This document shows positions 43,545 through 60,260 of a DNA stretch of 64,000 nucleotides, in pieces. Origin of the DNA: Pseudomonadota bacterium. GTDB lineage: Bacteria; Pseudomonadota; Alphaproteobacteria; Acetobacterales; Acetobacteraceae. The position numbers were made by a program, and so were the translations under genes. The DNA lies in contig JAKADX010000008.1 in the NCBI GenBank assembly GCA_021818505.1, forward strand, positions 62,001 through 126,000, given 5' to 3'. How positions within the stretch are numbered: position 1 is the first letter of the stretch; each line of letters begins with the position of its first letter. The notes under the pieces were generated by a model. The model made no database searches, had not been told where the DNA came from, and saw only the letters and a program-made list of their open reading frames with translations.

Positions 43545-45671
43545 CTACGCCGCGTGGGCAGACCGCAGGAAGGGGGTCCGGCGGTGCGGAGGCCGCCAGT
43601 ACCGTCCCCACGATGCGGCCTGCAGTTCCAGCGTCCTCGCCCGCCGCATCGGCCGCAGGCGCAGCAGCGCATCGCCGTCGGTCCAGCGCCACGCGGTGGT
43701 GTCGTCCCTCTCCGGCCCGTGAACGCCGGACGCGAGGGCGGCGTCGGTCAGTGCGACCGGATGGCCGTCGATTGCGATCGCGGTCAGCGCGAGACCCAGC
43801 CGGCGCCGGTCATCCTGCCGACGGTCGATATGCTCGGGCACGAAGCTGCGCGACAGCAGCCGCACATCGCGCGTGCCCGGCGGCAGGCGCACGGACCATC
43901 TGCCCAGCGACGCGGGCCGCGCGGGTACCACGATCCCGTCGGTCAGCACGCGCAGGCTTGGTGCGGTGGTCAGCCGATAGCCGAGTGACTCCGCTCGCGC
44001 CCGCAGGTCGCTCCACGCGCGCGCAACGGCGTCGCCGCCAAGCAGCAAGGGGGCGCAGCCGTGCGCCTTCCACACAAGCGCGCTGAAATCGGGGTGCAGC
44101 GCCTGCACGGCGCCGCCATTGTCGAAGGCGTTGCGGTTACCGGTGTCGAGATAGCTCTCCGCCGCCAGTCCCTCGGCGAGCAGCACGTCGTGCGAGTCGA
44201 GTTCGACATGAAAGTAGCGCACGCCTCCGGTCAGCCTGTTCTGGACGATGGTCGCGCCATTCAGCAACAGCCGCACCGGGATCAGCGCACCATTCAAAAA
44301 CACGGCATGGTCGGGCGAGAGCAGCAGGTCGCGGCGCGGCGTGCCGTCCGCGAACGCACCGGCGCGGACGCGCACCGGAGCGACCTGAGCGGGATAAGGA
44401 TGCCGGTCCAGATCGACGCGGGCCCGCCCGATCCAGCGAACCGGCCGCAGCGTCGCACGGCCATCGGCGACGGCGACCACGCGGCTGCCGACGCGCAGCC
44501 GCTCGATCGCCACGTCACCGTCCGCGGTGGCGATACGGGTGCCGGCGGCGTAGCAGGCCGCCGTGAGCACGAGGCCGCTGGCCGGCGCCCAGAGCGGCAT
44601 CTGCTGGGTGTCGTAGATCGCATTCCCCTGCCCCGGGTCGCTGTCGCTGGTCGCGAACCGCCCGTAGCCGTAGCCGTAATAGAGCCGGGCCGTCGCGTCG
44701 GTCGGCACGGTCGCACCGAACGTCAGCAGCACCTGGTCGGCAGAGGTCACCTGCGCGGCCGACGCCGCCAGCGTCTGACCGTTATCGAGGATGGACCAGC
44801 CGATCCCATGGGCGGCGTCGGCGTCCAGCGTCGTGCTCAGGGACGCGTGGTCGAGCGAGGCGGACACGAGGATCTGGTTGCTGCCAACCTCTTTGGCGCT
44901 CACCGCCTCCGGCCCGTAGGCGTCCACCTGCCCGAGCGCGACCGGCGAGCCGGGCTGGGCGTAGGACGCGAAGGTCTGGGCGACGGCAAGTGCCACCCGT
45001 TGATCAATCAGGGTCACGTCCGAGGCCGACATGTGCGGCCCGCCATACACGCCCGGCGTGCCGCCGGTGCCATAGAACGTGCCGTCCATGTTGAGATCGT
45101 CGGACTGCACCCCGACCACGGCGTTGAAGCTCGGGTCGGCGGCGAGTTGCGCCATGCCCTGCTTGATCGCCTGGTTGACCGATCCGATGCTGTTCGAGCC
45201 GTAGGGGATCGCGTTGACGAACACATAGGGCACGGTCGCCGCCGACTGGCCGAGAGCCTGTCGGACCTGCTGCGCCTCGAAGCGCACCGCGCTCGTCCAC
45301 TCGGCGGTGGTCAGGCTGGGGTTGGTGCTGTCGTATTCGTTGTGCAGCCACAGCACAGCCGTGGGCACGCTCCTCTCGGACGCCGGCAATTCGTTGATGT
45401 AGTTCAGCAACCCGGTTTCCAGCGTGTTGTTCGTCCAGCCCTGCTGCCAGCCGCCGGCGGACGGCTTCACCCAGTCGCCGACAAAGGCCGTTCCGCCGAC
45501 CAGCGTATTGTCGTTGCTGGTGCTATTCATCTTTTCCAGCAGGTTGACCGTGTTGGTCACCCCGTCGAAGCCCAGCAGTTTCTCGACCTCGGTCGCGACG
45601 GCCGGCCAATCCTTGGACATGGCGAGAAGCTGGGCGTTGGATTGCCCGCGAAGCAGAATATTCAGTTGCAT
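43545..45671 (-). CDS. Esterase-like (SASA/SGNH) protein fused to a Hint domain
   Basis: The 708-residue protein has two parts. Residues 1-240 resemble carbohydrate esterases of the sialate O-acetylesterase type, with LLRGQSNAQ (S11 as nucleophile candidate), AVLWLHNEYDS and GGPHMSASD. After a beta-rich middle region, a Hint (hedgehog/intein) domain begins at C373 (CYAAGTRIATADGDVAIERL), with VRWIGRARVDL, LLLSPDHAVFLNG and VELDSHDVLLAEG. Hint domains self-cleave at the cysteine, so the esterase part may be released or attached elsewhere. There is no classical signal peptide. The gap 45672-45961 upstream holds its promoter but no gene. Confidence 0.82.
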   Translation of the reverse strand: MQLNILLRGQSNAQLLAMSKDWPAVATEVEKLLGFDGVTNTVNLLEKMNSTSNDNTLVGGTAFVGDWVKPSAGGWQQGWTNNTLETGLLNYINELPASERSVPTAVLWLHNEYDSTNPSLTTAEWTSAVRFEAQQVRQALGQSAATVPYVFVNAIPYGSNSIGSVNQAIKQGMAQLAADPSFNAVVGVQSDDLNMDGTFYGTGGTPGVYGGPHMSASDVTLIDQRVALAVAQTFASYAQPGSPVALGQVDAYGPEAVSAKEVGSNQILVSASLDHASLSTTLDADAAHGIGWSILDNGQTLAASAAQVTSADQVLLTFGATVPTDATARLYYGYGYGRFATSDSDPGQGNAIYDTQQMPLWAPASGLVLTAACYAAGTRIATADGDVAIERLRVGSRVVAVADGRATLRPVRWIGRARVDLDRHPYPAQVAPVRVRAGAFADGTPRRDLLLSPDHAVFLNGALIPVRLLLNGATIVQNRLTGGVRYFHVELDSHDVLLAEGLAAESYLDTGNRNAFDNGGAVQALHPDFSALVWKAHGCAPLLLGGDAVARAWSDLRARAESLGYRLTTAPSLRVLTDGIVVPARPASLGRWSVRLPPGTRDVRLLSRSFVPEHIDRRQDDRRRLGLALTAIAIDGHPVALTDAALASGVHGPERDDTTAWRWTDGDALLRLRPMRRARTLELQAASWGRYWRPPHRRTPFLRSAHAA

Positions 45672-46995: not shown

Positions 46996-48117
46996 CTACG
47001 GTGCGTCGAGAGCCGCGTCCGCCGGAGCGTGATCCAGGCCGTGCGCGTGCGCGACCGCAGGATGGGTGATCACCCCGTTATGGATATTGAGGCCGTGGCG
47101 CAGATGCTTGTCGTCGGTCAGCGCCCGGCGCCAGCCCTTGCCGGCGATCGCCAGCACGAAGGGCAGCGTGGCGTTGCCGAGCGCGATGGTGGAGGTACGC
47201 GCGACCGCGCCGGGCATGTTGGTGACGCAGTAATGCACGACCCCCTCGGCGACGTAGGTGGGGGCAGCGTGGGTGGTCGGGCGGCTGGTTTCGAAGCACC
47301 CGCCCTGGTCGATTGCGATGTCGACAAGCACCGAGCCGGGCCGCATCTGGCGGACCAGTTCGCGCGACACCAGCTTCGGCGCCGCCGCACCCGGCACCAG
47401 CACGGCCCCGATCACCAGATCGGCATTGCGCACCGCGCCCTCGATCGCGTCGGCGGTCGAGAACAGCGTGTGCAACTGAGTTGGGAACTGCTCGTCAAGT
47501 TCGCGCAGCCGGCCGAGGGACTTGTCGATCACGGTGACGGTGGCACCGAAGCCGATCGCCATACGCGCGGCATTGCTACCCGCCACCCCGCCGCCGAGCA
47601 CCACCACGTTACCCGCCGGCACGCCCGGCACGCCGCCGAGCAGCACGCCCGCCCCACCCTGTTCCTTTTCCAGGCAGTGGGCGCCGACCTGCACGGACAT
47701 GCGCCCCGCGACCTCGCTCATCGGTGCCAGCAGCGGCAGGGCGCCGCGGTGGTCGGTCACCGTCTCATAAGCGATGCAGGTCGCGCCGGAGCGCATCAGT
47801 CCTTCGGTCTGCTGACGGTCGGCGGCGAGGTGCAGATAGGTGAACAGCACCTGCCCGGCGCGCAGCCGCGCGATCTCCTCCGGCTGCGGTTCCTTCACCT
47901 TGACGATCATTTCCGCGAACTCGAACACGGTCTCGGCGTCCCCGCCGAGGGCGGCACCGGCAGCGCGATACGCCTCGTCGGGAAAGCCGATGGCGCCGGC
48001 CGCACCCTGCTGCACCATGACCTGATGCCCACCGCGGGTCAGTTCGCGGACCGCCGCCGGGGTGAGGCCGACGCGGTATTCGTGGGTCTTGATCTCCTTG
48101 GGAATTCCGATCTTCAC
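46996..48117 (-). CDS. ald: Alanine dehydrogenase
   Basis: The 373-residue NAD enzyme interconverts alanine and pyruvate plus ammonia. Features are [37 protein letters not shown], the dinucleotide site [16 protein letters not shown] and [18 protein letters not shown]. The length is normal. It may supply nitrogen or keep redox balance; no operon partner is seen. Confidence 0.96.
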
Positions 48118-48276
48118 CTGCGCCTCCGCGCCGAACTATGCACCCGGGATGCTAGCCCCGGACGCGCCACGGCGCCAAACTGCCGGCCGAGTTGCAAACT
48201 GCCCGCCGAGTTGGCGGCCGGGCACACCGCGACCAGGTTTTGCCGCAGACCAGCCCGTGCTATCAGGAGGCGGGCG

Positions 48277-48353
48277 GTTCCCGTAGCTCAGCTGGATAGA
48301 GCACAGGATTCCTAATCCTGGGGCCGTGGGTTCGAATCCCGCCGGGAACGCCA
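48277..48353 (+). tRNA. tRNA-Arg(CCT)
   Basis: The 77 bases fold as a cloverleaf: acceptor GTTCCCG/CGGGAAC, D arm GCTC/GAGC, anticodon stem CAGGA/TCCTG with loop TTCCTAA, T arm GTGGG/CCCGC and an encoded CCA. The anticodon CCT reads AGG. It stands at the edge of the accessory block to its right, but no repeat of its 3' end was found in the window. Confidence 0.97.
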
Positions 48354-48620
48354 AGCATTGTAAAGAGATTACAGACCGACCGAAGCGGGCCTGCAAGTGC
48401 CGGACATCGCTGACGACTGAATTGCAGTGTGATGGCCGCCGGTGGCCGGCCGTGCCAGTCGGACCCGAGGCCGCTCACGCTGACCCGTCGCCGCGCTGTC
48501 TCGCCACGCAACGGGAAGCGATCTCATTCTTCCATCAATTCTACGCGCGACAGCTCTCCGCTACTGCACCGGGGACGGCGTCGAATTTGGTCGCACTACC
48601 CACCCGCAGCGCAATCCGCT
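48354..48620. other. Gene-free stretch between tRNA-Arg and accessory cluster
   Basis: This 267-bp stretch shows no convincing gene, repeat or hairpin. Open frames here lack ribosome sites and run into the tRNA. It may be old integration debris, but no att-like sequence is seen. Confidence 0.5.
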
Positions 48621-48668
48621 TTCATTGGGAACCCCGCTTCAATTATAATTCTTGTAATGCGGGGGGGG
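48621..48668 (+). promoter_or_regulatory. Promoter with exact TATAAT and G8 tract before di-heme gene
   Basis: An exact -10 box TATAAT (48644-48649) has a weak -35 (TTCATT, 48621-48626) at 17-bp spacing. The leader contains eight G in a row (48661-48668) running into the ribosome site GAGG before the start at 48679. The AT-rich promoter stands out from the GC-rich surroundings. The G8 tract could change spacing by slippage. Confidence 0.45.
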
Positions 48669-48678
48669 AGGCAAACCC

Positions 48679-51129
48679 ATGCGACCCGGACGGCTGATGA
48701 CCGCGATCACGGCCTTGACTGCGATCACTGGCTTGGTCGCCCCGGCAGCGGCGCAGCGCGCAGGCCACGTCCTCGATGAAGCACAGCAGGCAGGCTGGAA
48801 TGACGGACGGTTCCATCATGCCGACGAAGACTATTTCCGCGACATGGACGGTGGCCCGGCCCTGCGCCTGGATGCGCAGGAGATCATCGGCCGGAACATG
48901 TGGCTGGTCTGGACAGGAGGCAACGACCGGTTCTGGGATCGCATGACCGGCCTGACCTTCGGCGCATTCGATCTGCTGAAGATCGTCGCCTATGACCCGC
49001 GCGCGCCGATCGACCGCGCGCGTCGCTGGACCTGGCTTGGTCTGATCAACGAACCCTGCTTCGATCCGCCCAAACAGCCCGACCCTGACAGGTTCGGGCT
49101 GCTGTTGGACACGCGGCGCTCCGACTGCGCGGCTGACCCGTTCGCCAACGAAGCCAAGTATCCTGGCATCCACATCGGCGCGCGCGGAAAGACAGTGCCG
49201 GTCGGCTCCGTGTACGGCTGGCCCACCGGCATCGTGGGCTTGCGGCTGTTTCCCAATCCCGCGTTCGATGAGGCCGCGAAGCGCAAGTGGGACCCGCTGC
49301 GCTACTTTTCCGACCAGAGTTACTACAACGACAAGGACCTGGTCCGTCCGTACCGGATCGGCATGTCCTGCGGCTTCTGCCATGTCGGACCGAGCCCGAT
49401 CCACCCACCTGCCGATCCGGCCAATCCGAAGTGGGAAAACCTGAGTTCGACCGTCGGCGCACAGTACATGTGGGTTGACCGGCTGTTCGTGTACGACACG
49501 CGGAAGGACAACTTCATGTTCCAGCTGGTGCACACGTACCGGCCGGGCACCATGGATACCTCATTGGTCTCCACCGACAACATCAATAATCCCCGCACGA
49601 TGAATGCGATCTACAGCCTCGATGACCGCATGAGGCTGGCTCTGCGCTGGGGGCGGGAGAATCTGTCCGGCGGAGAGCTGAAAAACAAACAGCTGAACGA
49701 CTACGTCAAAAGCGGGCCGCTGACCAACTTCTTCCAGCCTCCCAGCACGGTCTGGACCCCGCACGTACTCAAGGACGGATCCGACTCGGTCGGCGTGCTG
49801 GGTGCGCTGAACCGGGTGTATCTCAACATCGGGTTGTTCAGCGAGGAGTGGCTGCTGCACTTCAATCCGGTGGCAGGCGGGAAGCCGATCAGTCCGATTC
49901 CGATCGCCACCGCAGAGAAGAATTCGGCCTACTGGCGCGCGACCGAGGCGGGAACGCCGGATATGGCCCTGTTCTTTCTGAAGGCGGGACGGCCCGATCA
50001 TCTCGCTGATGCCCCCGGCGGTGCGAAATACCTGACTGCCACCCCCGCCGTGCTCGACCGCGGGAAAACCGTGTTCGCCGAGACGTGCGCGCGCTGCCAC
50101 TCCAGCAAGGCGCCGACGCCGGCGGCGGGACTCGATCCCGCCGGTTGCGCCGGTCCCGGGTATCTGCAGTGCTGGAATGAATACTGGGCGTGGACCAAAA
50201 CCGCCGACTACCAACGCCAGATGGACGCAATCGTTCACGCGCCTGACTTCCTGGATCACAATTACCTTTCGACGGATTTCCGGGTCCCCGTGACGCTGCT
50301 GCAAACCAATGCCTGCAGCCCGCTCGCGACCAACGCGCTGGCCGGAAACATCTGGGACAACTTTTCATCGCATTCCTACAAGACCTTGCCGTCGGTCGGA
50401 ACCGTGACGGTGCACGATCCGTTCACCGGGGAAGCGCATGCTTACCTCATGCCGGCGGGCGGACGGGGCTATACGCGCCCTCCGTCGCTGATCAGCGTCT
50501 GGTCCTCCGCGCCGTTCCTCCTCAACAACACGCTGGGGCCGTTCGAACAGGACCCGTCGGTGGACGGCCGGATGCGCCTCTTCCAGGCATCCATCGAGCA
50601 ACTGCTCTGGCCGGAAAAGCGCGCCAAGGATCCGGTACTCGGCGACAAGGTCCCGGGCGTGATCGACCGCACAACGGCGCGCAGCAATATCACAATCCCG
50701 GCCGGATTTGTGCCTGACATGCTGAAACCGGCCAGCGGGCCGCTGCACCTGCTGCTGCCGAAACTGTTCAATGCCGACGGCAGCATCACGTTGGGCCCGA
50801 TACCGGCCGGCATCCCGGTGAACCTGCTGGCCAATCTGCAGCCTTTGCCGGAAGGCGGCTCGGCGCTTGAGAAGGCCGAGCATGTTGCGACGGTGCTGAA
50901 GCTGCTGGTGCAGCTCAAGTCCGACCTGCTCAGCCTGCCGGATGATGCCACCGACGATCAGGTGCGGGCGACATTCGCCAATTCTGTGCCGACTCTGCTC
51001 AAGCTGAACAAATGCCCGGATTTCGTGGTGAACCGCGGGCACTATTTCGGCACGGGCCTGGCGGACGGCGAGCCCGCGCTCAGTGACGAGGACAAGCGCG
51101 CACTCATTGAATTTCTGAAGACATTCTGA
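48679..51129 (+). CDS. Secreted di-heme c-type cytochrome, RoxA/peroxidase-like
   Basis: The 816-residue protein has a signal peptide (about 1-25, ending APAAAQ) and two heme-c attachment sites: C231-G-F-C-H and C470-A-R-C-H. The segment NMWLVWTGGNDRFWDRM and the large spacing between the hemes recall rubber oxygenase RoxA and related di-heme oxygenases more than short cytochrome c peroxidases. It would act in the periplasm or outside. The GMC oxidoreductase gene follows 9 bp later. RoxA cleaves carbon double bonds with oxygen; a peroxidase role is the alternative. Confidence 0.75.
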   Translation: MRPGRLMTAITALTAITGLVAPAAAQRAGHVLDEAQQAGWNDGRFHHADEDYFRDMDGGPALRLDAQEIIGRNMWLVWTGGNDRFWDRMTGLTFGAFDLLKIVAYDPRAPIDRARRWTWLGLINEPCFDPPKQPDPDRFGLLLDTRRSDCAADPFANEAKYPGIHIGARGKTVPVGSVYGWPTGIVGLRLFPNPAFDEAAKRKWDPLRYFSDQSYYNDKDLVRPYRIGMSCGFCHVGPSPIHPPADPANPKWENLSSTVGAQYMWVDRLFVYDTRKDNFMFQLVHTYRPGTMDTSLVSTDNINNPRTMNAIYSLDDRMRLALRWGRENLSGGELKNKQLNDYVKSGPLTNFFQPPSTVWTPHVLKDGSDSVGVLGALNRVYLNIGLFSEEWLLHFNPVAGGKPISPIPIATAEKNSAYWRATEAGTPDMALFFLKAGRPDHLADAPGGAKYLTATPAVLDRGKTVFAETCARCHSSKAPTPAAGLDPAGCAGPGYLQCWNEYWAWTKTADYQRQMDAIVHAPDFLDHNYLSTDFRVPVTLLQTNACSPLATNALAGNIWDNFSSHSYKTLPSVGTVTVHDPFTGEAHAYLMPAGGRGYTRPPSLISVWSSAPFLLNNTLGPFEQDPSVDGRMRLFQASIEQLLWPEKRAKDPVLGDKVPGVIDRTTARSNITIPAGFVPDMLKPASGPLHLLLPKLFNADGSITLGPIPAGIPVNLLANLQPLPEGGSALEKAEHVATVLKLLVQLKSDLLSLPDDATDDQVRATFANSVPTLLKLNKCPDFVVNRGHYFGTGLADGEPALSDEDKRALIEFLKTF

Positions 51130-51138
51130 GCCGCGGCG

Positions 51139-52968
51139 ATGGCCGAGCCGGATTGCGACTATGTGGTCGTCGGCTCCGGTGCGGGCGGCGGGACGGTTGC
51201 GGCGCGTCTTGCCGAGGCGGGCATGCGCGTGGTCGTGCTGGAGGCCGGAGGTGACCCTCGTGCGGAGAGCACGCGTCTGCCGGCGGATTACGACGTGCCG
51301 GCTTTCCATACGTTCGCTTCCGAGAACCCGGCGATCGCATGGGACTTTTTCGTGCGTCACTACGCCGACAGGGCGCAGCAGCAGTGCGATCCCAAGCTGA
51401 CGCCGGCAGGCATTCTCTACCCCCGAGCGGGCGCGCTGGGCGGCTGCACCGCCCATAACGCAATGATCCTGATGCGACCGCACGATGCGGACTGGGATGG
51501 TATCGCCGATCTCACCGCTGACCAGTCCTGGCGGGCGCCGGCGATGCGGCAATACTGGCAGCGGCTCGAAAGCTGCCGGCACCGGCCGATCTGGCGCGCG
51601 CTCGCACGGCTTGGCATCGATCCGACGGGACACGGCTGGAACGGGTGGCTGACCGCGGAACGGGCACTGCCGCGGGAGGCAATGGATGACCATGCGCTGC
51701 TGCGCACCGTGCTGCGCTCGGCAGTGGCCGCAATGGCGCACACGCGCAGGCCATGGACCTCATTTCTCCGTCTGCTCGATACCGCAGCGGACCCCAACGA
51801 TGTGCGCAACGCGGGGGCGGCCGGCGTGGATGTCTGGTACACGCCGCTCTCCACCAAAGACCACGTCAGGATGGGAACCAGGGAGCGCCTGCTTGCCGTG
51901 GCGGCGCGCTATCCGGATCGGCTGCGAATTTCGCTGAACAGCCTGGCGAACCGGATCGTGCTCGATGACGCGAACCGCGCGATCGGCGTCGATTACCTCA
52001 AGGGAGAAAGTCTGTACAGGGCGGGACGGCAAGGATCGCAAAAGGGTACGCCCGAGCGCATTCACGCAAGGCGCGAGGTCATCGTGGCGGGCGGCGCGTT
52101 CAACTCGCCGCAGTTGCTGATGCTGTCGGGCGTGGGACCAGCGGCGGAACTGTCCGCCCACGGCATCGCACAGCGACTGGATCTTCCTGGCGTGGGCCGC
52201 AACCTGCAAGACCGTTACGAGATCGGCGTCGTCAACCGTCTGCGGCGTCCATGGCGTGCGCTCAAGGGCGCGCGGTTCGCTCCTGGCGATGGCTTGTATG
52301 AGGCCTGGGCGAAACAGCGCAGCGGCATGTACATCTCCAATGGCGCCGCGCTTGCCGCTACATTGTCGTCATCCCCGGGGAGAGACCCGCCGGATTTATT
52401 CTGCATGGCGCTGCTGGCCAGGTTCAATGGCTACTTCCCTGGCTACTCGCAGCAGATCGCGGCACATCACAATTATCTCACGTGGGCAATTCTCAAGGCG
52501 CACACAGGAAACAGGGCCGGAGTCGTATCGCTTCGCTCCGCCGACCCGCGCGATCCGCCGCAGGTGGACTTCCATTATTTCTGTCAGGGCGAAGCGGAAG
52601 ACCTGGGCGCAGTCATCGCGGCAATCCGGTTCGTTCGCAATCTCGGGGCAGGCATCGGCGAATTGATCGAACAGGAAGAGGAGCCTGGGGCGCATCTGAC
52701 CGATGACGCGCAGCTTGCACAGTATGTTCGCGACCGCGCCTGGGGTCATCACGCGTCCTGCTCCTGCGCGATCGGGCCGCGCGAGCAGGGCGGCGTGCTC
52801 GACAGCGCCTTCCAGGTCCATGGCACAACCGGACTGCGGATCGTCGATGCCTCGATCTTTCCCCGAATCCCGGGATTCTTCATCGCGGGCGCGATCTATA
52901 TGGCGGCGGAGAAGGCTGCCGATGTGATCCTGAGCGCGGCGCGGGCGTCGGCGGCGATCATTGCGTGA
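51139..52968 (+). CDS. GMC-family FAD oxidoreductase
   Basis: The 609-residue flavoprotein has the FAD fold (CDYVVVGSGAGGGTVAARLAEAG), the GMC signatures LGGCTAHNAMI and GGAFNSPQLLMLSGVG, and the C-terminal HHASCSCAIG and GLRIVDASIFPRIPGFFIAG. The usual catalytic His-Asn pair near the end is changed here (WGHHAS then PRIPGFF), which may alter the reaction. It would oxidise an alcohol or related group. No signal peptide is seen. It is convergent with the DyP gene, with which it overlaps by 11 bp. Confidence 0.85.
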   Translation: MAEPDCDYVVVGSGAGGGTVAARLAEAGMRVVVLEAGGDPRAESTRLPADYDVPAFHTFASENPAIAWDFFVRHYADRAQQQCDPKLTPAGILYPRAGALGGCTAHNAMILMRPHDADWDGIADLTADQSWRAPAMRQYWQRLESCRHRPIWRALARLGIDPTGHGWNGWLTAERALPREAMDDHALLRTVLRSAVAAMAHTRRPWTSFLRLLDTAADPNDVRNAGAAGVDVWYTPLSTKDHVRMGTRERLLAVAARYPDRLRISLNSLANRIVLDDANRAIGVDYLKGESLYRAGRQGSQKGTPERIHARREVIVAGGAFNSPQLLMLSGVGPAAELSAHGIAQRLDLPGVGRNLQDRYEIGVVNRLRRPWRALKGARFAPGDGLYEAWAKQRSGMYISNGAALAATLSSSPGRDPPDLFCMALLARFNGYFPGYSQQIAAHHNYLTWAILKAHTGNRAGVVSLRSADPRDPPQVDFHYFCQGEAEDLGAVIAAIRFVRNLGAGIGELIEQEEEPGAHLTDDAQLAQYVRDRAWGHHASCSCAIGPREQGGVLDSAFQVHGTTGLRIVDASIFPRIPGFFIAGAIYMAAEKAADVILSAARASAAIIA

Positions 52969-54436
52969 GGAACCGCAGCGCCCTCACGCCGGGCAGAAAG
53001 AAGTAGCCTCCGCCACGAACCGTCACGAAAGGCGGAATCGATTGCAGCCTGCGGGCAACTCCATTGGCCTGCGGCAGGCTGAAGCGATCGGTCGGCTGGC
53101 CCGATTGCAGCGGCATGCGATTGCCTGTCAGCGGGTCGCTCTCGTCGCCCAACCCGTTGAACTTCGCACTGTTGAGCCAGGCGTTCTGAATGAACTCGAA
53201 CTGACGGCTGATATTCGCGTTCAGACAGATGAAGTGCAGCCCGCTGGCCGGCTCGGGACAGTCAGGCTGCATCGCTGTCCGCGGATCGACCCAACTGCCG
53301 AACTCGCGGCCGCGCCGGACGATCCGATGAAAGCGGCTCGACGCGATGAGGTCGGACCGCAGGTCTGGTCGTGGGACGCCCAGAGTGCGCAACAGCCGCG
53401 CGACGAGACCCTGCCGCCCGCCGGGCAGATCGCCGGTGCGAGGATTCGCACGACGTACATGCGCGCCGACGGGACAGCCGACGCCGGCGCGGTCCGCATC
53501 GTATATGAACTGGTTGGCTTCGATATCAGCCTGCCCCGGCCCAACTCCTCGGATCGGCAGGTGATGACGGGCCACCAGCGGCTCACCGGAACGATGGCGG
53601 CCGACCATGGCCTCCGCCAACGCTTCGGCACCGGATATGCCGGCCTGCTCGGCAACAAAGCGCCAAAAGCCTCTCACATCCTGGTGCAACTCACGCAATA
53701 CGAGATAGCTGCCGTTACGACCCAGGTCGCGCGATCCGTGTCGGTCTTCGGCATCAGGCAGCGCACCGGATTCCGCGAGCACCGGCCGTTCTGTATAGAG
53801 GCCGTATTCGTTGCGATAGCCCAGCACGAACTCGCCCACGCTGATCAGGTTGCCGTACTCGAGATCATCAGACGAATTCGGCGTCCGCCGACCTTCCCAG
53901 TCGATCCGCGGCTGGCTGACCCCATCCTTGAATCCAAACGGCTCTTTGCTGCCCATGTCCGAAGTGGGCAATTCATGCACCACCGTGAACCCGGCCTGCC
54001 GGACGGCCGCGCCGATGTCCCGCTTGAACGTCTCCAGACCGCCCGCCTGTGCATAGAGCAGCAGCAGGGCGTCGGGTTCGCTTGGATACCCCCAGCGCCA
54101 GTTTTCTGGAGCACTCGCGCCGACATCGCCGAGCCGGCGCGAACGGGCCGCATCACCTGCCATGCCGTCCAGGAATTCCGGCGCGAATGCGTCTCTGATC
54201 CGATCCGGCACACCAAGGCGGCGAAGACCGTTCGCCGACAGCGCAATCTGCAAAACAGTCGCCTGGGGATTTGCCAGATCCGCGATCGTTGTCACCCCTG
54301 CGGTGTGCAGCCAGACCCGCGCCGCCGGAGGGTTGTCGATCCGCACCAACAGAAAGGCTGCCTCGGGCAGCGAACCGAAACCCGACCAGAGCAAACCCTG
54401 GATATCGACAGCCTCGGCCGGCTGCGTCGCGTTCAT
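52958..54436 (-). CDS. DyP-type heme peroxidase
   Basis: The 492-residue protein is a large bacterial DyP peroxidase. It shows the distal motif FGFKDGVSQP (D171), the proximal histidine region GAHVRRANPR (H327) and FHRIVRRGREFG. It uses peroxide to oxidise dyes, phenols or lipid-derived substrates. There is no signal peptide or encapsulin tag. It overlaps the next upstream gene by ATGA and is last in a three-gene minus-strand operon. Confidence 0.9.
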   Translation of the reverse strand: MNATQPAEAVDIQGLLWSGFGSLPEAAFLLVRIDNPPAARVWLHTAGVTTIADLANPQATVLQIALSANGLRRLGVPDRIRDAFAPEFLDGMAGDAARSRRLGDVGASAPENWRWGYPSEPDALLLLYAQAGGLETFKRDIGAAVRQAGFTVVHELPTSDMGSKEPFGFKDGVSQPRIDWEGRRTPNSSDDLEYGNLISVGEFVLGYRNEYGLYTERPVLAESGALPDAEDRHGSRDLGRNGSYLVLRELHQDVRGFWRFVAEQAGISGAEALAEAMVGRHRSGEPLVARHHLPIRGVGPGQADIEANQFIYDADRAGVGCPVGAHVRRANPRTGDLPGGRQGLVARLLRTLGVPRPDLRSDLIASSRFHRIVRRGREFGSWVDPRTAMQPDCPEPASGLHFICLNANISRQFEFIQNAWLNSAKFNGLGDESDPLTGNRMPLQSGQPTDRFSLPQANGVARRLQSIPPFVTVRGGGYFFLPGVRALRFLTQ

Positions 54437-55716
54437 ATCAGTGCGAGCCAGCGGCGGGCTTCGACATCGGTCATGCTCGCTCGCTGCAAACCCTCACGAA
54501 TCTGCGTGTTGGTCGCAAGGTCGGCGGCGGTCAGTCCGGGATAGGCCTTGTACCAGACCTGTGTCGGCAGTTGGTGCCGGCGAAGGTAGTTCTTGAATTC
54601 CTGCTCCCTTGCCGCCCCACCACCAAGGAGAAAACGCGTACGCGGCCAGCCGATGCCGTTGCTGAAGACAAGATTGAGGCCAAACGCGACCTTGTTGATG
54701 AAATCGTCCATGTAGCTGTCAAGGCTGCCATCGTAGTTGCTGGCAAACAACAGGCGGCGCCGGTTGTCGAGAAACACCCAGCGGGCAAAATGGATCGTCC
54801 CGACACGCGCGAGCCGGCCCCGGGTGTAGATGAAGCGGGTGCTGAACTCGAGCATCCGGAACACCAACAGCAGGGTCCACAGACGAAACCGCCCCGGCTT
54901 GACGCTGCCGAAGGCACTGAATGCGTTGCTCACATCATAATCCTCCAGCGCCGCCAGTTCGACGACGTGCAGTGGATCAGGCCGTGGCGCGATGACCGGG
55001 TCGGCGCGCTCGCGCCGGCGCAACTGCCAAAGAAGCAGCGGAGAGCACAGCAGGAGGATCGGGGCGAGAAGAAGTCCGACCAGCGCCGTTTGCGTCAGCC
55101 ATAGCGCACGTTCGCGTCGCCATGCTGCTGGCGTGGCTAGCTGCGGAGACAGAACGGGGCCGCCACGCCGCGCCTGCTCGACCAGCCGTGCGCGTATCGC
55201 GGCAGGTGCCTGACTCAGGAGATGAGGCTCGCGGCCAAGCGAGTTGCGCAGAAATTCGTGCAGCGCAGCCTCCTCGCGGATTTGCTGCACGGTCCGGCCG
55301 ACCCAGTTCACATATTGCGCCGCAGGCATGACGGAATGTCGGCGCATCCAGTCCAGCAGGTCAGGGCCGGGCGGCACCTCGCAATGGGCGAAGATCTGGC
55401 GCAGGCCGTCAGCGGCAGTGCCGGCGAACCGAGCCAGCATGTCCTCAGCGGAACCGTCACAATCTCCCAAAAAAACCAGCCAGACAGGCGCATCCGGGAA
55501 GACAATGCCGTAGGCTCCGAGGTCCGACAGTGTCTTGTCGTGCAGGATCACGAAGCGCGCGACGTGCAGTTGCGGATAGCTGGCGAAAGGCAACAATGCG
55601 TTGCGCGGATCGGCCTGTCCTGGAGCGTCATTCATTTGCCCCAGCAGTCGCTGCAGTTCCGGCTCCCTATGCGCTTGGATCGGCGCGGCAACCATGAACG
55701 TCGATTGCGGGGTCAT
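54433..55716 (-). CDS. Membrane protein of unknown function coupled to DyP
   Basis: The 427-residue protein has one strong hydrophobic region (LTQTALVGLLLAPILLLCSPLLLW, about residues 208-231). The N-terminal half (FMVAAPIQAHREPELQRLLG, ARFVILHD, PVWLVFLGDCDG) looks soluble and could be a ferredoxin-like fold. The C-terminal half has RVGTIHFARWVFLDNRRRLLFASNYDGSLDSYMDDFI. No family is known to me. The ATGA overlap with the peroxidase gene suggests the two proteins work together, perhaps with the peroxidase at the membrane. Confidence 0.7.
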   Translation of the reverse strand: MTPQSTFMVAAPIQAHREPELQRLLGQMNDAPGQADPRNALLPFASYPQLHVARFVILHDKTLSDLGAYGIVFPDAPVWLVFLGDCDGSAEDMLARFAGTAADGLRQIFAHCEVPPGPDLLDWMRRHSVMPAAQYVNWVGRTVQQIREEAALHEFLRNSLGREPHLLSQAPAAIRARLVEQARRGGPVLSPQLATPAAWRRERALWLTQTALVGLLLAPILLLCSPLLLWQLRRRERADPVIAPRPDPLHVVELAALEDYDVSNAFSAFGSVKPGRFRLWTLLLVFRMLEFSTRFIYTRGRLARVGTIHFARWVFLDNRRRLLFASNYDGSLDSYMDDFINKVAFGLNLVFSNGIGWPRTRFLLGGGAAREQEFKNYLRRHQLPTQVWYKAYPGLTAADLATNTQIREGLQRASMTDVEARRWLALI

Positions 55717-55731
55717 CGCCGCCGCCCGACG

Positions 55732-56169
55732 TCAGAACTGCAGGGCGAAGTCGAACAGCCGAGCCTTGTCCCAGTACACTTTACCCAGATACAGGCCGGG
55801 AGGCGCAATCAGCCGAATCTCGTCACGGATCCAATGCGCCACAACCGATGTTTCGGAGTAGTCCAATACGATGCATTCCTTACCGTCGAGCCAACTCGGC
55901 GCCTTGTAAACCTTTGCAATGATAGCATTCAAGCCAAACGGGCCAATACGGTTCTTGAGCTGCCCTTTCGCCGGATCAAAGACTTTCCCCTGCCATGCGA
56001 AATACTTAACGAACTGAGCAATTTCAGGGGACCACTCCGTGCCGGGGGCAATGATTGCCGTGCCGTCGGCCTCCCCGGCGGGAACAGGGCCCGCGTCGCT
56101 GGCAGTGAACACGGCATCCAGCTCCTCCTGCGACATGCGCAGGAGCCGCGGAACATCATAAGCGACCAT
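55732..56169 (-). CDS. Small protein of unknown function in DyP operon
   Basis: A 145-residue soluble protein beginning YDVPRLLRMSQEELDAVF and containing GTAIIAPGTEWSPEIAQFVKYFAWQGKVFDP, KECIVLDYSETS and IRDEIRLIAPPGLYLGKVYW. It looks like a small beta-rich binding domain. It is the first gene of the minus-strand unit, 15 bp before the membrane-protein gene. No function is known to me; a lipid- or heme-handling role is only suggested by the neighbours. Confidence 0.7.
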   Translation of the reverse strand: MVAYDVPRLLRMSQEELDAVFTASDAGPVPAGEADGTAIIAPGTEWSPEIAQFVKYFAWQGKVFDPAKGQLKNRIGPFGLNAIIAKVYKAPSWLDGKECIVLDYSETSVVAHWIRDEIRLIAPPGLYLGKVYWDKARLFDFALQF

Positions 56170-56256
56170 TCTGCGTCACCCCTCTGTGAGCCGCTTCTTG
56201 GCGCGCCGAGCGCAGCACATCCAACCATTGTTGCGCAAGTCATTTATCAGCCGTGT

Positions 56257-56262
56257 TATAAT
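56257..56262 (+). promoter_or_regulatory. Exact TATAAT -10 box before catalase-like gene
   Basis: TATAAT lies in an AT-rich island 70 bp before the catalase-like start, in the divergent region with the DyP operon. A TTGCGC at 56231-56236 is a poor -35 (20-bp spacing). Together with the box at 48644 it suggests that both plus-strand units use similar strong -10 elements. Confidence 0.4.
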
Positions 56263-56331
56263 TTGCTTCCGTTGTCGCTCGGGGAATGCCATCCTCGGGA
56301 CCCTGGTCCGTGACCTGAAGGGATCGGCGGC

Positions 56332-57516
56332 ATGGTGTTACAGCGAGTGCACGACGCGGTCGTGTTTCTGCTGCATGTCGAGCGCCGTTTCGAGCCGTTC
56401 TTTCGGCCATTCCTTGACTCATTGCTTCGGGAACCACTCGCAGCGCTCACTCAGACGCTGATCAACCGCGGGCGGTCCGACGATGGGCTACAGCTTGCCG
56501 AGGAAGCCCTTCAACCCGACGAGGAAGCGCATCTGAAGGCGATCATCGAAACCCTGGGTACTTACATGCGGCAACATTGGGCCCCCGGCAACTTTCAGCG
56601 CGGCGGGAACACCAAGACACACGGCGTCGTGCGGGCCAGCTTCAGCGTCCGCGGCGATCTGCCGCCGCGCTATCGCCACGGGCTGTTTGCGCAGCCACGC
56701 AGTTATCCGGCGTGGGTGCGCTTCTCCGGCCCGGGACCTGACTGGCCGCGTGATATTGACGATGTCGGGTTCGTAAGCTGCTCGATAAAGGTCATGGGCG
56801 TTCCGGGCCCGAAGCTTATGGAGGACGAGAAGTTCACCCAGGACTTCCTGGCGATATGCACGCCGACGTTCGTGACACCGGATACCCGGTCCAACGCAAA
56901 GCTCCAGGCATGGATATTGAAAGGTACGCCGCTTTTCTATTTTGTTGATCCACACGATTCACACATTCTGGACGGTTTCATGCAATCGCTCTGGAATAAG
57001 ACCCAAAGCAATCCGCTCGGCGAGCGCTATTGGAGTTGCGTACCCTACCTGCTCGGCGAAGGTCAGGCGATGATGTACTCGCTCTACCCCCGTTCCAAGG
57101 TGTATCGCCATATTCCACGCCTGCCCTTGCGGCCGCCCGACAACTACCTGCGCGACAACATGGTGCGCACCCTGGCGGACCAGGACGTCGAATTCGACTT
57201 CATGATCCAATTGCAGACCGATCCGTACAGGATGCCGGTCGAGAATGCGGCCGTGCGCTGGCCGGAGCGGTTGTCCCCGTTTGTCCCGGTCGCGCGTCTG
57301 CACATTCCGCGCCAGCACTTCAACTCACCCGAGCAACTCGCCTTCGCCAACGTGCTGTCCTACAATCCCTGGCACGCATTGCCCGCGCACCGGCCATTAG
57401 GCAATCAAAGCCGGGCGCGGCGACGAATGTACTGGGAACTGTCGCGCTTGCGGCAGGGCATGAACCAGACGCCACACGTGGAGCCGAACGGTGAGGAGGT
57501 TTTTCCCGACGGGTGA
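56332..57516 (+). CDS. Catalase-fold protein, y4iL-like
   Basis: The 394-residue protein has the catalase core in the reduced y4iL-like form: distal-histidine region NTKTHGVVRASFSV (H97), YRHGLFAQPRSYPAWVRFSGPG, the C-terminal FNSPEQLAFANVLSYNPWHALPAHRPLGNQSRARR with a likely proximal tyrosine just after it (RMYWEL). Such proteins bind heme and often act on organic or lipid hydroperoxides, not hydrogen peroxide. A patatin-like gene follows 41 bp later on the same strand. Confidence 0.83.
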   Translation: MVLQRVHDAVVFLLHVERRFEPFFRPFLDSLLREPLAALTQTLINRGRSDDGLQLAEEALQPDEEAHLKAIIETLGTYMRQHWAPGNFQRGGNTKTHGVVRASFSVRGDLPPRYRHGLFAQPRSYPAWVRFSGPGPDWPRDIDDVGFVSCSIKVMGVPGPKLMEDEKFTQDFLAICTPTFVTPDTRSNAKLQAWILKGTPLFYFVDPHDSHILDGFMQSLWNKTQSNPLGERYWSCVPYLLGEGQAMMYSLYPRSKVYRHIPRLPLRPPDNYLRDNMVRTLADQDVEFDFMIQLQTDPYRMPVENAAVRWPERLSPFVPVARLHIPRQHFNSPEQLAFANVLSYNPWHALPAHRPLGNQSRARRRMYWELSRLRQGMNQTPHVEPNGEEVFPDG

Positions 57517-57557
57517 CTGACCCGAAAGCGCAACTGCGGCTTTAAGGGACGGAAAAC

Positions 57558-60260
57558 GTGGACACGACCGGGATCAAGTTGGACCGGCTTTCGGCGTTGA
57601 CCGACGAACTCGGCGCTGTGCGGGCACTTCCGGCCACTCCCGCAGACGAAAGGGAATTACGCGCGCTCGCCCATCGGCTCGGCCTTTCCGCTCTCTGCCT
57701 GTCCGGGGGCGGAATCCGCAGTGCGGCGTTCAATCTCGGCGTCCTTCAGGCCCTCGCCAGACACGGCCTGCTTGCCGAATTCGATTTCCTCTCGACTGTC
57801 TCCGGCGGCGGCTACATCGGATCCTGGCTTCAGCGCATGGTCCGTGAACGCGGGTCGCCTGCCGCCGCGCAGGCGGTGCTCGGCAACCTTGAGGATCCGC
57901 CGCCCGAACTACGGGAACTGCGCGATTACACCAGCTATCTCGCGCCGAACGGTGGGTTGCTTTCGGCGGACATTTGGGCGGACATCGTACTTTACCTGCG
58001 CAATGTGCTGCTGAACTGGGCCGTGTATCTGCCGCTCCTCGGGCTTGTGGTGATGCTGGCCATCTTTTACCGCACGCTGATATGGACCCTCGGTTTCGCG
58101 CGCCCGGCGCAGTTGATCTGCATCGTGCTGGCCGCTCTCTGTGTCGCGGCGAGCGCGCATTTCGCGGCTCGCGATCTGCCTGACCACCGCCCGTTCCGGG
58201 GCTCGCGCATTGCCTACGCCACGCCGGAGCAGATCAACCGTGACGTAATCTGGCCCTCGCTTGGCTTTGCTGCCCTGGCACCGATGTCGCAGGACGTGGG
58301 CGGCCGCGCTGTTGACCCGGCGCTACCCGCGCTTCTCGCCGCCTACTTCCTGGCGCAGACGGTCGGGTATCTGTCGGCCTGGCTCTGGGCAGCGCTCAGT
58401 GACAAGCAAGCCCGGCTGTTCACGGGAAATGCCATCGCCTATGGGGCTGCGACCGTCGTCTCGACCGCGCTGATCGGAGCCGGTGGAGCGCTCGCGACAC
58501 TGGTTCCGGCGAACGAACGGGCGCAGGCCCTGGCTGTCGCCGGACCGTTTTGGATGATGCTGGCTTTCGGCATCCACGCGACGGTCTTTGTTGGACTCAG
58601 GCGCGTCAGCACCCAGTTCGATCTGGATCGCGAGTGGTTGGCACGATTGAGCGCACTGAAGCTGCGCGCCGGCGCTTTGTGGATGGTGTTCGCGCTTGCA
58701 GCTCTGTCGCTCAGTTGGGCGATCCACCAGAGTATCGCCTGGCTGAGCAGTCTGACCGGTGCCGTGATGTTGGCATCCGGATCTGCGGGAGCGTGGCTCG
58801 GTAAGCAGGTGTCATCGACGGTCGGGACCGTCCTGCGAACCGGTGTGACGTCGCAGGGCGGTCGTGCCGCTGCACTCACTGTGCTTTGCGCCGTGTTCGT
58901 CCTCGGCCTCGTCGCGATGCTGGCGATCGCGGCCGAGGCAATGCTGGCCGTGGTGCAGATTTGGCTGAACAGGGCACTGCTCGGCGCGGGATCGGCCGAC
59001 ATCCCCGATTGGCTGCTCTTTGCTGTCCAGGCAGCGGCGTTGGTATCGTTGCTTCTGACCGTGCGCTGGCTCAACCGTCGGGTCAATGTGAATCGCTACT
59101 CAATGCACGCGGTTTATCGAAACCGCCTGACGCGGGCGTTTCTCGGTGCCGCTCGTACCGTCGGCCGCGATGCCGATCCGTTCACCAATTTTGATTCGGC
59201 CGACAACATATCGATGGCAGGCCTCTGCCGGCCGGGCCAGCAGCGCAAGCTGTTCCCGATCATCAACATGACACTCAACCTGACTGTCGGCGGCGCGGCC
59301 GCCTGGTCGGAACGCAAGGCCATGGTCTTCACGGCAACGCCGTGTGCTTGCGGCGCGCCACTGCTCCGACCGCACGCCAGGGTTACCAGCCGCGACACGA
59401 CGCCGCCCGGCGTATATGTCCGGACCGGGGACTACGCTGGCCTGGAAAATCCGGATGCCGATCCGCGGACGATGCAGGGGCTTTCACTCGCCACCGCGAT
59501 GGCGATATCCGGCGCGGCGGTCAGTCCGAATTGGGGTTATCATTCCTCGCCGCTGACCGCGTTCGTGATGACGTTGTTCAATGTCCGTCTTGGAGCCTGG
59601 CTGCCCAATCCGGCAGTCGTGGACGATCCGGCACAACTGCGGCTGGCGTTTCCGCTGCGCAGCGTCAGCGTCTTGATCGGGGAGCTGCTGGGCGCTGCGG
59701 GAGACGCGTCGTCCGCGATCTATCTGTCGGACGGCGGACACTTCGAAAACCTCGGGCTCTATGAAGTTCTGCGTCGGCGTTGCCGGCATGTCATCGTCAT
59801 CGATGCGGGAGAGGACAGAGGATGCAGCTTCGAAGATCTCGGGAACGCGCTGCGAAAGTCCGCGATCGACATGCAGATCAGCGTGACGTTCGAATTCGCT
59901 CCGCGCATTGCCTCGCGTGACGACGCGGCGGCGTCGGCGAAGGCACTCGGGTACGCCATCGCCACCATCCACTATCCGGAACCGTGTGAGCATCCTTGCA
60001 AGCTGGTCTATCTGAAGCCCTCTCTGCTTGCTGGCGTCCCCGCGGATGTCAGAGCTTACGCGAACGCCAACCCATCGTTTCCGCATGAGCCGACGCTGGA
60101 CCAGTTCTTCACCGAGAGCCAGTTCGAAAGCTACCGTGCGCTTGGGCAGTTCCAGATGGAGCAAGCGATCGGTGCTGCAACCCCCGGCGATCTCGCCGGA
60201 ATTTTCGACGCCGTGGCCCATGCCTATCAATCGTCGCCCGTCGCAGCCAATGAAGCGTGA
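57558..60260 (+). CDS. Patatin-like phospholipase split by a membrane domain
   Basis: The 900-residue protein begins a patatin domain (CLSGGGIRSAAFNLGVLQAL, oxyanion glycines 50-52; nucleophile S82 in STVSGGGYIGSW). It then has a membrane region of about eight to nine spans (residues about 148-500) and resumes the patatin domain with the catalytic aspartate D725 in LSDGGHFENLGLYEVLRRR. It would hydrolyse membrane lipids at the inner membrane. The start is GTG at 57558 after AAGGGACGG. It is the last gene of the accessory cluster and likely supplies fatty acids to the oxidative enzymes beside it. Confidence 0.85.
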   Translation: MDTTGIKLDRLSALTDELGAVRALPATPADERELRALAHRLGLSALCLSGGGIRSAAFNLGVLQALARHGLLAEFDFLSTVSGGGYIGSWLQRMVRERGSPAAAQAVLGNLEDPPPELRELRDYTSYLAPNGGLLSADIWADIVLYLRNVLLNWAVYLPLLGLVVMLAIFYRTLIWTLGFARPAQLICIVLAALCVAASAHFAARDLPDHRPFRGSRIAYATPEQINRDVIWPSLGFAALAPMSQDVGGRAVDPALPALLAAYFLAQTVGYLSAWLWAALSDKQARLFTGNAIAYGAATVVSTALIGAGGALATLVPANERAQALAVAGPFWMMLAFGIHATVFVGLRRVSTQFDLDREWLARLSALKLRAGALWMVFALAALSLSWAIHQSIAWLSSLTGAVMLASGSAGAWLGKQVSSTVGTVLRTGVTSQGGRAAALTVLCAVFVLGLVAMLAIAAEAMLAVVQIWLNRALLGAGSADIPDWLLFAVQAAALVSLLLTVRWLNRRVNVNRYSMHAVYRNRLTRAFLGAARTVGRDADPFTNFDSADNISMAGLCRPGQQRKLFPIINMTLNLTVGGAAAWSERKAMVFTATPCACGAPLLRPHARVTSRDTTPPGVYVRTGDYAGLENPDADPRTMQGLSLATAMAISGAAVSPNWGYHSSPLTAFVMTLFNVRLGAWLPNPAVVDDPAQLRLAFPLRSVSVLIGELLGAAGDASSAIYLSDGGHFENLGLYEVLRRRCRHVIVIDAGEDRGCSFEDLGNALRKSAIDMQISVTFEFAPRIASRDDAAASAKALGYAIATIHYPEPCEHPCKLVYLKPSLLAGVPADVRAYANANPSFPHEPTLDQFFTESQFESYRALGQFQMEQAIGAATPGDLAGIFDAVAHAYQSSPVAANEA

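What the first reader, a model, noticed from the sequence alone, without database searches (positions are those of the whole stretch)
48679..60260. Heme-redox and lipase cluster: candidate undescribed lipid oxidation system
A di-heme RoxA/peroxidase-like cytochrome, a GMC oxidoreductase, a DyP peroxidase, a y4iL-type catalase-fold protein and a membrane patatin occur side by side with two unknown proteins. Catalase-fold relatives can rearrange fatty-acid hydroperoxides, and patatins release fatty acids. A bacterial oxylipin-like route, or oxidative breakdown of a hydrophobic polymer, would explain the set.
Basis: inference. Interest (0 to 1): 0.72.

Follow-up and report, generated by a model that had tools for sequence, protein, structure and literature searches.

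The report
Conserved bacterial lipid-oxidation gene cassette
Seven neighbouring genes in this bacterium belong to a gene set that recurs in distantly related bacteria, in some of them beside enzymes that attach oxygen to fatty acids, so it probably makes or processes oxidised lipids by a route that our searches did not find described.

Summary
The genes at 48679-60260 are a conserved cassette. A scan with the small unknown protein (U145) gave 72 loci in several phyla; U427 follows U145 directly in 48 of 64 loci with room, and DyP follows U427 in 49 of 49. In an even draw of 398 genomes, U145 and full-length U427 occur in the same 4, own genome included, each with DyP and the catalase-fold gene nearby.

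In ten actinobacterial or Chloroflexota loci a fatty-acid alpha-dioxygenase relative stands there and the di-haem cytochrome is absent (L086 against alpha-dioxygenase 4kvj E=1.8e-113). That is the best evidence for a lipid-hydroperoxide pathway.

The catalase-fold protein keeps the proximal haem site, but the distal His (11 of 12 genomic relatives) is Asn in 44 of 44, and the distal Asn is Ser/Cys in 42 of 44: not an ordinary catalase. U427 and DyP occur fused to a P450-like domain in 1,423-1,620-aa proteins. U145 is predicted as a lipocalin-like barrel.

No substrate or product is shown; breakdown of another hydrophobic substrate is not excluded. The oxylipin idea is partly supported.

The parts
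48679..51129 (+). CYT, 816 aa, predicted exported di-haem cytochrome c, distant relative of RoxA / FadCcp oxygenases
   Evidence: CxxCH at 231 and 470, two in 29 of 29 aligned members; NF040606 1.4e-6, below cut-off; N-terminal hydrophobic segment 6-25
51139..52968 (+). GMC, 609 aa, FAD-dependent GMC oxidoreductase, no hydrophobic signal segment seen
   Evidence: PF05199 2e-26, PF00732 5.9e-20; adjacent on the same strand to CYT in 37 of 51 CYT loci
52958..54436 (-). DYP, 492 aa, long dye-decolorising-type haem peroxidase
   Evidence: profile A4 against DyP structures 3.9e-79; directly follows U427 in 49 of 49 loci with room
54433..55716 (-). U427, 427 aa, two ferredoxin-like (ABM-like) domains with a long hydrophobic helix between them
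   Evidence: AlphaFold pLDDT 89.6, helix 197-238; VIA Z 13.1 to 9lmn_B (WhiE-ORFI), rmsd 3.9, 222 aligned; hydrophobic segment 204-233
55732..56169 (-). U145, 145 aa, predicted lipocalin-like beta barrel, candidate lipid carrier
   Evidence: AlphaFold pLDDT 85; VIA Z 13.8 to 4mve_A (Tcur_1030), rmsd 2.5, 128 aligned; 35 invariant columns in 27 sequences
56332..57516 (+). CAT, 394 aa, catalase-like haem protein with changed distal pocket (N93 for His)
   Evidence: profile hit to 1u5u 0.0021; residue counts in 44 cassette and 12 related non-cassette sequences
57558..60260 (+). PAT, 900 aa, polytopic membrane patatin-like lipase
   Evidence: PF01734 5e-9; Ser (SGGG) and Asp (DGG) present in 13 of 13 aligned; PAT hits in 13 of 72 loci

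Best explanation
A modular pathway for oxygenated lipids. A membrane lipase (PAT here; class-3 lipase or alpha/beta hydrolase in a few other loci) frees acyl chains. A swappable haem oxygenase (here the di-haem CYT; an alpha-dioxygenase relative in actinobacteria; a YRWH-type haem peroxidase 3.4 kb from one Nitrosospira cassette) puts O2 on the chain to give a hydroperoxide. U145 carries the hydrophobic intermediate. A membrane-anchored U427 working with the haem proteins DYP and CAT rearranges or reduces the hydroperoxide, and GMC oxidises a resulting alcohol. Shown: gene linkage across phyla, fusions, families, residue patterns. Inferred: lipid substrate, order of steps, carrier role, and that CAT acts as a hydroperoxide isomerase or lyase rather than a catalase.
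For: Conserved linkage confirmed in an even draw of 398 genomes. Alpha-dioxygenase relatives at the core: L086 against 4kvj 1.8e-113, with Tyr where 4kvl has Phe; YR[MW]H in 11 of 12 hits (L033's partial hit lacks it); one genome of the even draw (G675) has a 1,008-aa relative, 8.3e-57. Lipases at the cassette: patatin 13, Lipase_3 2, alpha/beta hydrolase 4 of 72. The only PDB sequences found by the CAT profile up to E 1 are AOS-LOX entries 1u5u and 3dy5 and 3e4w. CAT distal pocket changed, proximal kept. P450-U427-DyP fusions; U145-U427 in one stop-free frame in three Streptomyces. Window CYT haem spacing 239 residues against 245/235 in PA2077/PA2078 and 199 in RoxA (PMC4496055 passages).
Against: No biochemistry. 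CYT is below the curated NF040606 cut-off and its profile finds no RoxA structure up to E 1. CYT is predicted exported, while GMC, DYP, CAT and U145 show no hydrophobic signal or membrane segment in a simple scan, so the steps may be split between compartments. CAT lacks the His that is proposed to abstract the hydrogen in coral AOS (PMC5617202 passage). CYT-GMC occurs without the core in 2 of 398 genomes. L066 and G382 have the core without a recognised dioxygenase in the stretch read. Seven loci (six Cupriavidus records and one Burkholderiaceae) have CYT-GMC-U145 with a molybdenum-type subunit instead of U427-DYP-CAT. CYT and the RoxA-like cytochromes coexist in 6 loci, so these two do not replace each other.
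Confidence: 0.58

Rival explanations
1. Catabolism of another hydrophobic substrate (polyisoprene, terpenoid or plant wax): CYT cleaves C=C bonds as RoxA does, giving aldehydes and ketones that GMC and other oxidases take on.
For: CYT relatives give weak RoxB/RoxC model hits (3 of 6 run); a RoxA-like cytochrome family (PF21419 in both L072 members run) lies at the cassette in 6 of 72 loci; seven Cupriavidus/Burkholderiaceae loci add a molybdenum-type subunit (L029 run), with a [2Fe-2S] protein next to it (L030 run).
Against: Fatty-acid alpha-dioxygenase relatives take the oxygenase place in actinobacteria; lipase genes recur; the core is kept when CYT is absent.
Confidence: 0.2
2. Defence against lipid peroxidation: DYP, CAT, U427 and U145 remove lipid hydroperoxides; the oxygenase neighbours are sources or sensors of them.
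For: DYP, CAT, U427 and U145 stay together when the oxygenase changes.
Against: A scavenger would not be expected to lose the catalase distal His and Asn or to travel with enzymes that make hydroperoxides; the P450-U427-DyP fusions fit synthesis better (inference).
Confidence: 0.14
3. Chance neighbourhood of unrelated redox genes.
For: Only 2 of 36 genomes searched in the family, own included, carry a close CAT copy.
Against: Synteny across phyla and the even-draw test.
Confidence: 0.02

Closest known systems
Pseudomonas aeruginosa oleate-diol synthase pathway (10S-DOX PA2077, 7,10-DS PA2078; FadCcp di-haem proteins)
   Same: Di-haem cytochrome c with two CxxCH about 240 residues apart; lipid oxygenation proposed for ours.
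   Different: P. aeruginosa uses two paralogous di-haem proteins of about 630 aa (ORFs 1905 and 1875 bp); here there is one of 816 aa, far below the NF040606 cut-off and without the PYFHNGS histidine, plus DyP, catalase-like, GMC, U427, U145 and patatin genes.
Coral catalase-related allene oxide synthase (AOS-LOX) and MAP-2744c (3e4w)
   Same: Weak profile match; proximal R-x3-Y-x6-R pattern kept.
   Different: Distal His and Asn of cAOS are replaced by Asn and Ser/Cys; no lipoxygenase turned up among the neighbouring proteins that I scanned.
Fatty-acid alpha-dioxygenase pathway
   Same: Actinobacterial versions of this cassette contain an alpha-dioxygenase relative.
   Different: The window cluster has none; the passages that I saw of the bacterial alpha-DOX paper (PMC8720084) do not discuss gene neighbours.
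RoxA/RoxB/RoxC rubber dioxygenases
   Same: Two CxxCH and a C-terminal GH-xFG...LKT segment.
   Different: No RoxA structure found by profile; motif histidine lost in the window's branch.
DyP-type peroxidases
   Same: DyP profile over nearly the whole length, with conserved Asp, His and Arg columns.
   Different: Occurs paired with U427; on some plasmids fused to U427 and a P450-like domain.

Membership tests
RoxA / FadCcp di-haem oxygenases (CYT) | two CxxCH haem motifs | tested here: met
   29 of 29 aligned members (window plus 28 of the 48 extracted)
RoxA / FadCcp di-haem oxygenases (CYT) | MauG-type histidine in PYxHNGS | tested here: not met
   window has PFLLNN; His kept in 6 of 29 (L026, L034, L035, L071, L072, L082)
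RoxA / FadCcp di-haem oxygenases (CYT) | score over NCBIfam NF040606 cut-off | tested here: not met
   27.8 of 150 bits; six relatives 26.3-39.6 bits
RoxA / FadCcp di-haem oxygenases (CYT) | dioxygenase activity on fatty acid or isoprene | not testable with these tools
   needs enzyme assay
Catalase / catalase-related hydroperoxidases (CAT) | proximal Arg-x3-Tyr-x6-Arg and two further haem Arg | tested here: met
   R90, R130, R363, Y367, R374 in 44 of 44. Pairing with cAOS R64 and R102 from a very weak HMM stretch (-0.8 bits); with Y353 and R360 from spacing only; cAOS residues from PMC5617202 passage
Catalase / catalase-related hydroperoxidases (CAT) | distal histidine | tested here: not met
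   Asn in 44 of 44 cassette proteins; His in 11 of 12 related proteins; the weak HMM stretch pairs this Asn with cAOS H67
Catalase / catalase-related hydroperoxidases (CAT) | distal asparagine | tested here: not met
   Ser 36, Cys 6, Val 1, Thr 1 of 44; Asn in 11 of 12 related proteins
Catalase / catalase-related hydroperoxidases (CAT) | catalase fold | tested here: inconclusive
   profile E 0.0021, best stretch 60 positions to 1u5u; no structure predicted for CAT
DyP-type peroxidase (DYP) | DyP profile and catalytic Asp/His/Arg | tested here: met
   3.9e-79 to 8re3; D171, H326, R374, R375 invariant in 29; residue roles recalled. Pfam DyP_N and Dyp_perox_C stay below cut-off
Patatin-like lipase (PAT) | Pfam cut-off, Ser and Asp of the dyad | tested here: met
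   37.1 of 27.7 bits; Ser and Asp in 13 of 13, but the first Gly of GxSxG is Thr, Ser or Ala in all 13; of relatives run, L035 passes and L067 has no hit, L087 is below cut-off
GMC oxidoreductase (GMC) | GMC N and C domains over cut-off | tested here: met
   substrate class not assignable
Lipocalin / calycin carriers (U145) | lipocalin barrel fold | tested here: inconclusive
   no Foldseek match at E 0.001 or better, best rows FABP and lipocalins at 0.06-0.1; VIA Z 13.8 to Tcur_1030, about 6 to lipocalins
P. aeruginosa-type oleate-diol synthase system | tandem pair of FadCcp paralogues | tested here: not met
   one CYT in the cluster
Fatty-acid alpha-dioxygenase (relatives only) | full-length alpha-DOX match with catalytic Tyr | tested here: met
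   L086: 29-614 of 620 aa; L147 matches in pieces; the other loci only by tblastn and motif; not present in the window cluster

The most novel reading that the evidence does not exclude
CAT is a new class of catalase-fold haem enzyme with a distal Asn in place of His. It works on a membrane-anchored U427-DyP platform (on some plasmids fused to a P450) as the shared hydroperoxide-converting core of an ancient, widespread bacterial oxylipin pathway, to which lineages couple different dioxygenases (di-haem cytochrome, alpha-DOX, YRWH haem peroxidase).
Probability: 0.33. Interest if true: 0.9.

Novelty: new variant of a known kind. Interest (0 to 1): 0.72.

Why it matters
Signalling by oxidised fatty acids in bacteria is known to me mainly from P. 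aeruginosa (recall, and abstracts in the listing). If this reading is right, several bacterial phyla share a dedicated machinery for lipid hydroperoxides with interchangeable oxygenases, and two protein families without Pfam match (U145, U427) and a non-catalase catalase relative get a testable role. The multi-haem fusions offer a single-polypeptide handle for biochemistry.

Tried and rejected
Anti-phage defence: no PADLOC match up to E 0.01 for any of the seven proteins. Phage proteins: five of the seven were scanned against PHROGs; one match at E 0.54 (CAT), taken as chance. RoxA by structure-linked profile: none up to E 1; profile comparison of CYT with the RoxA-like neighbours matched only 40 columns round the second haem (Prob 92.5, E 4.8e-7). 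Integration at tRNA-Arg (48277-48353): a T-arm-like pattern matched only in this tRNA, and the 20 largest of 55 direct-repeat families shown hold no long pair flanking the cluster; not a full test. Empty-site test in four congeners: the alanine-dehydrogenase side is found in all four; a close aldolase copy in two, on other contigs; no tRNA in the six stretches read. So insertion is neither shown nor excluded; the lower G+C (0.617-0.657 in 48001-60000 against 0.701 before and 0.674 after) only hints at foreign origin. A quick tree of 52 U427 rows follows phyla closely (6 changes, least possible 5; 16 of 49 inner branches open), so rampant transfer is not supported. Literature: eight searches listed no paper recognisable as describing this gene set; subscription journals are not held. 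In the own genome PF21419 has no match and PF03098 one, on another contig. CYT matches of E 4e-4 to 9e-4 (7 of 12 genomes) were dropped as generic cytochrome c. Of 23 genomes with U427 matches, 19 had weaker ones (E 1.7e-68 or worse) in long fusion-like frames or over part of the profile and were not counted as full-length. A Nocardia U145 hit (36 percent) had no other cassette gene by tblastn with Streptomyces queries.

Full report
What is there. The seven ORFs named in the finding exist. Upstream lie a tRNA-Arg and, on the other strand, a gene that I recognise as alanine dehydrogenase-like (no family search run); downstream a class II aldolase. The window lies on contig C23 of a 4.44-Mb genome. 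G+C falls to 0.617-0.657 across 48001-60000. Among 36 genomes of the family searched with CAT (own included), only the own genome and G031 hold a close copy (74 percent identity); other matches are 26-38 percent relatives.

Conservation. A scan of one genome per species with U145 as query returned 72 loci. This sample is chosen by U145, and many contigs are short. Counts over all 72 (tblastn): U427 53, DYP 50, CAT 44, CYT 51, GMC 44, PAT 13, alpha-dioxygenase or related haem peroxidase 12, RoxA-like cytochrome 6, class-3 lipase 2, alpha/beta hydrolase 4, molybdenum-type subunit 7. Order: of 64 loci with 1.5 kb after U145, U427 comes next in 48, a molybdenum-type subunit in 7, a lipase in 2, CAT in 2, a RoxA-like cytochrome in 2, CYT in 1, nothing close in 2. 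Of 49 loci with room after U427, DYP follows in 49. CYT and GMC are adjacent on one strand in 37 of 51. The four-gene core U145-U427-DYP-CAT is complete in 41 of 72; of these 28 have CYT and GMC, 4 CYT without GMC, 9 a haem-peroxidase hit (L033 is in both the 28 and the 9), and L066 neither.

Unbiased test. In an even draw of 398 genomes of the phylum (the two draws show the same size and tallies), U145 was found in 4 and full-length U427 (E below 1e-100) in the same 4, one of them the own genome. In the window and in the three stretches fetched DYP and CAT lie with them. Their partners differ: CYT and GMC in G000 and G537; a 1,008-aa alpha-DOX relative in G675 (8.3e-57), where U145 and U427 are about 4.3 kb apart with this gene and a second, 31 percent CAT-like gene between; another GMC and an alpha/beta hydrolase in G382. 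Convincing CYT matches occur in 5 of 398: two with the core; G489 and G356 with GMC only (G356 also with PAT, 33 percent); G389 at 28 percent without other cassette genes in the 20 kb read. So CYT-GMC is a separable module.

The oxygenase position. In L086 (Streptomyces cirratus) the neighbour is an animal-haem-peroxidase-family protein, Pfam 3e-104; its nearest solved structures are 'fatty acid alpha-oxidase' 4kvj (1.8e-113) and 'alpha-dioxygenase' 4hhr (1.4e-109) (rice and Arabidopsis enzymes, recalled), well ahead of cyclooxygenases (2.8e-17). It has Tyr, like 4kvj, where 4kvl has Phe. Ten loci (L077-L081, L083-L087), by their titles actinobacterial or Chloroflexota, hold such a gene and none of the ten has a CYT hit. 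A shorter hit 3.4 kb from the Nitrosospira core (L064) carries YRWH, the motif that PMC4496055 gives for fungal linoleate diol synthase (passage); a partial hit in L033 lacks it. This replacement is the main reason to think that CYT also makes lipid hydroperoxides. By sequence alone CYT is only a remote relative of RoxA and the FadCcp proteins: two CxxCH in 29 of 29, spacing 239 residues in the window, C-terminal GH-x-FG...LKT, the PYxHNGS-type histidine kept in 6 of 29 and lost in the window's branch; NF040606 at 27.8 bits here and 26.3-39.6 in six relatives, against a cut-off of 150.

CAT. Against 12 related proteins from genomes of the same family (L004-L015, not at a cassette, which held about 1.5 kb on either side), the 44 cassette proteins (43 loci plus window) keep R90, R130, R363, Y367 and R374 in 44 of 44. 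The distal pair is changed: position 92 is Gly (44 of 44; relatives Val 11, Ile 1), 93 Asn (44 of 44; relatives His 11, Phe 1), 176 Ser or Cys (42 of 44; relatives Asn 11, Ser 1). In coral allene oxide synthase the haem-site residues are R64, R102, R360, distal T66, H67, N137 and proximal Y353, said to match catalase (PMC5617202, passage). The pairing of our positions with these rests on motif spacing and on a very weak HMM stretch that sets our Asn on H67 (-0.8 bits). CAT is therefore likely a haem protein but neither a normal catalase nor a copy of the coral enzyme. That it converts hydroperoxides is inference from its neighbours.

U427, DYP and U145. U427 is modelled with confidence (pLDDT 89.6) as two ferredoxin-like domains with a long helix (197-238), largely hydrophobic, between them; the nearest solved folds are ABM/SchA-like polyketide proteins (9lmn_B Z 13.1, rmsd 3.9, 222 aligned; 9ltx Z 10.8, rmsd 4.6, 201 aligned). 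On plasmids of Novosphingobium, Pararhizobium and Sulfitobacter a single ORF of 1,443, 1,423 and 1,620 aa contains a P450 region (Pfam 20.2, 37.8 and 27.4 bits; cut-off 22.8, so the first is below it), then a U427 region (profile 4.6e-62, 1.3e-74 and 3.6e-65), then DyP; one genome of the window's class (G183) has P450, U427 and DYP as neighbouring genes. In three Streptomyces U145 and U427 share one stop-free frame of 582 aa. These fusions argue that the products act together. U145 is predicted as a beta barrel with N-terminal helices (pLDDT 85), nearest to Tcur_1030 (4mve_A, Z 13.8, rmsd 2.5, 128 aligned), with lipocalins near Z 6 and no significant Foldseek match; a lipid carrier is a reasonable guess, not a result.

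Reading. The most economical account is a lipid oxygenation pathway with a fixed hydroperoxide-handling core and exchangeable entry enzymes, in a minority of loci with lipases nearby and, where CYT is used, usually a GMC flavoenzyme. Main weaknesses: no substrate; CYT is predicted exported while most partners lack such segments in a simple hydropathy scan; and seven Cupriavidus/Burkholderiaceae loci replace U427-DYP-CAT by a molybdenum-type subunit with a [2Fe-2S] protein, which fits oxidation of an aldehyde (inference) and leaves room for catabolism of another hydrophobic substrate. Whether the pathway makes signals, modifies membranes, degrades food or attacks neighbours cannot be told from sequence.

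Novelty. P. aeruginosa oxylipin enzymes, bacterial alpha-dioxygenases and catalase-related allene oxide synthases are known. Eight searches of the open-access library (listings only) showed no paper recognisable as an account of this gene set. The passages read in PMC8720084 report alpha-DOX sequences in five bacterial phyla, and its text has no occurrence of 'gene cluster' or 'neighbor'. The passages shown of the review PMC11719350 (first 300,000 characters held) do not mention it. I file it as a new variant of a known kind, lipid-hydroperoxide metabolism, with a bolder reading in the section on the most novel reading.

Noticed in passing
L090:4814-9145, L091:4874-9145, L092:4775-9637: Giant natural P450-U427-DyP fusion proteins on plasmids of Novosphingobium, Pararhizobium and Sulfitobacter; in the 398-genome draw six genomes of the window's class have U427 matches in open frames of 1,410-1,544 aa.
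   Followed up: partly
L059:4694-5353 and L060:9767-10207: U145 in two Rhodocyclaceae without other cassette genes in the stretch held; in L059 Pfam shows PAS, MCP-signal, ammonium-transporter and GST genes near it, and clustering puts relatives of three neighbours in L060.
   Followed up: partly
L087:14461-14850: A 129-aa family without Pfam match lies just before the alpha-dioxygenase gene in 9 of the 10 loci with a hit to it.
   Followed up: no
L026:4999-5421: A second U145-like copy in the Blastocatellia locus, between a class-3 lipase and RoxA-like cytochromes.
   Followed up: no
L147:8184-9230: A second, more distant CAT-like gene (31 percent) between U145 and the alpha-dioxygenase relative.
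   Followed up: no
L019 (CAJCJG010000246.1): Record titled Solirubrobacterales, yet its contig length (45,793) equals that of G031:C246, which genome search puts in the window's family; its label is probably wrong.
   Followed up: partly
43545-45671: 708-aa ORF with a Hint_2 domain (6.1e-42, residues 373-510), near the cluster and apparently unrelated.
   Followed up: no
L029:14108-16294: A Cupriavidus locus has a 728-aa PF00141 haem peroxidase (two matched stretches) a few genes after CYT-GMC-U145.
   Followed up: no
L156 (G000:C92:178812-179150): The own genome has an An_peroxidase-family match (1.7e-7) in an open frame of 551 aa on another contig.
   Followed up: no
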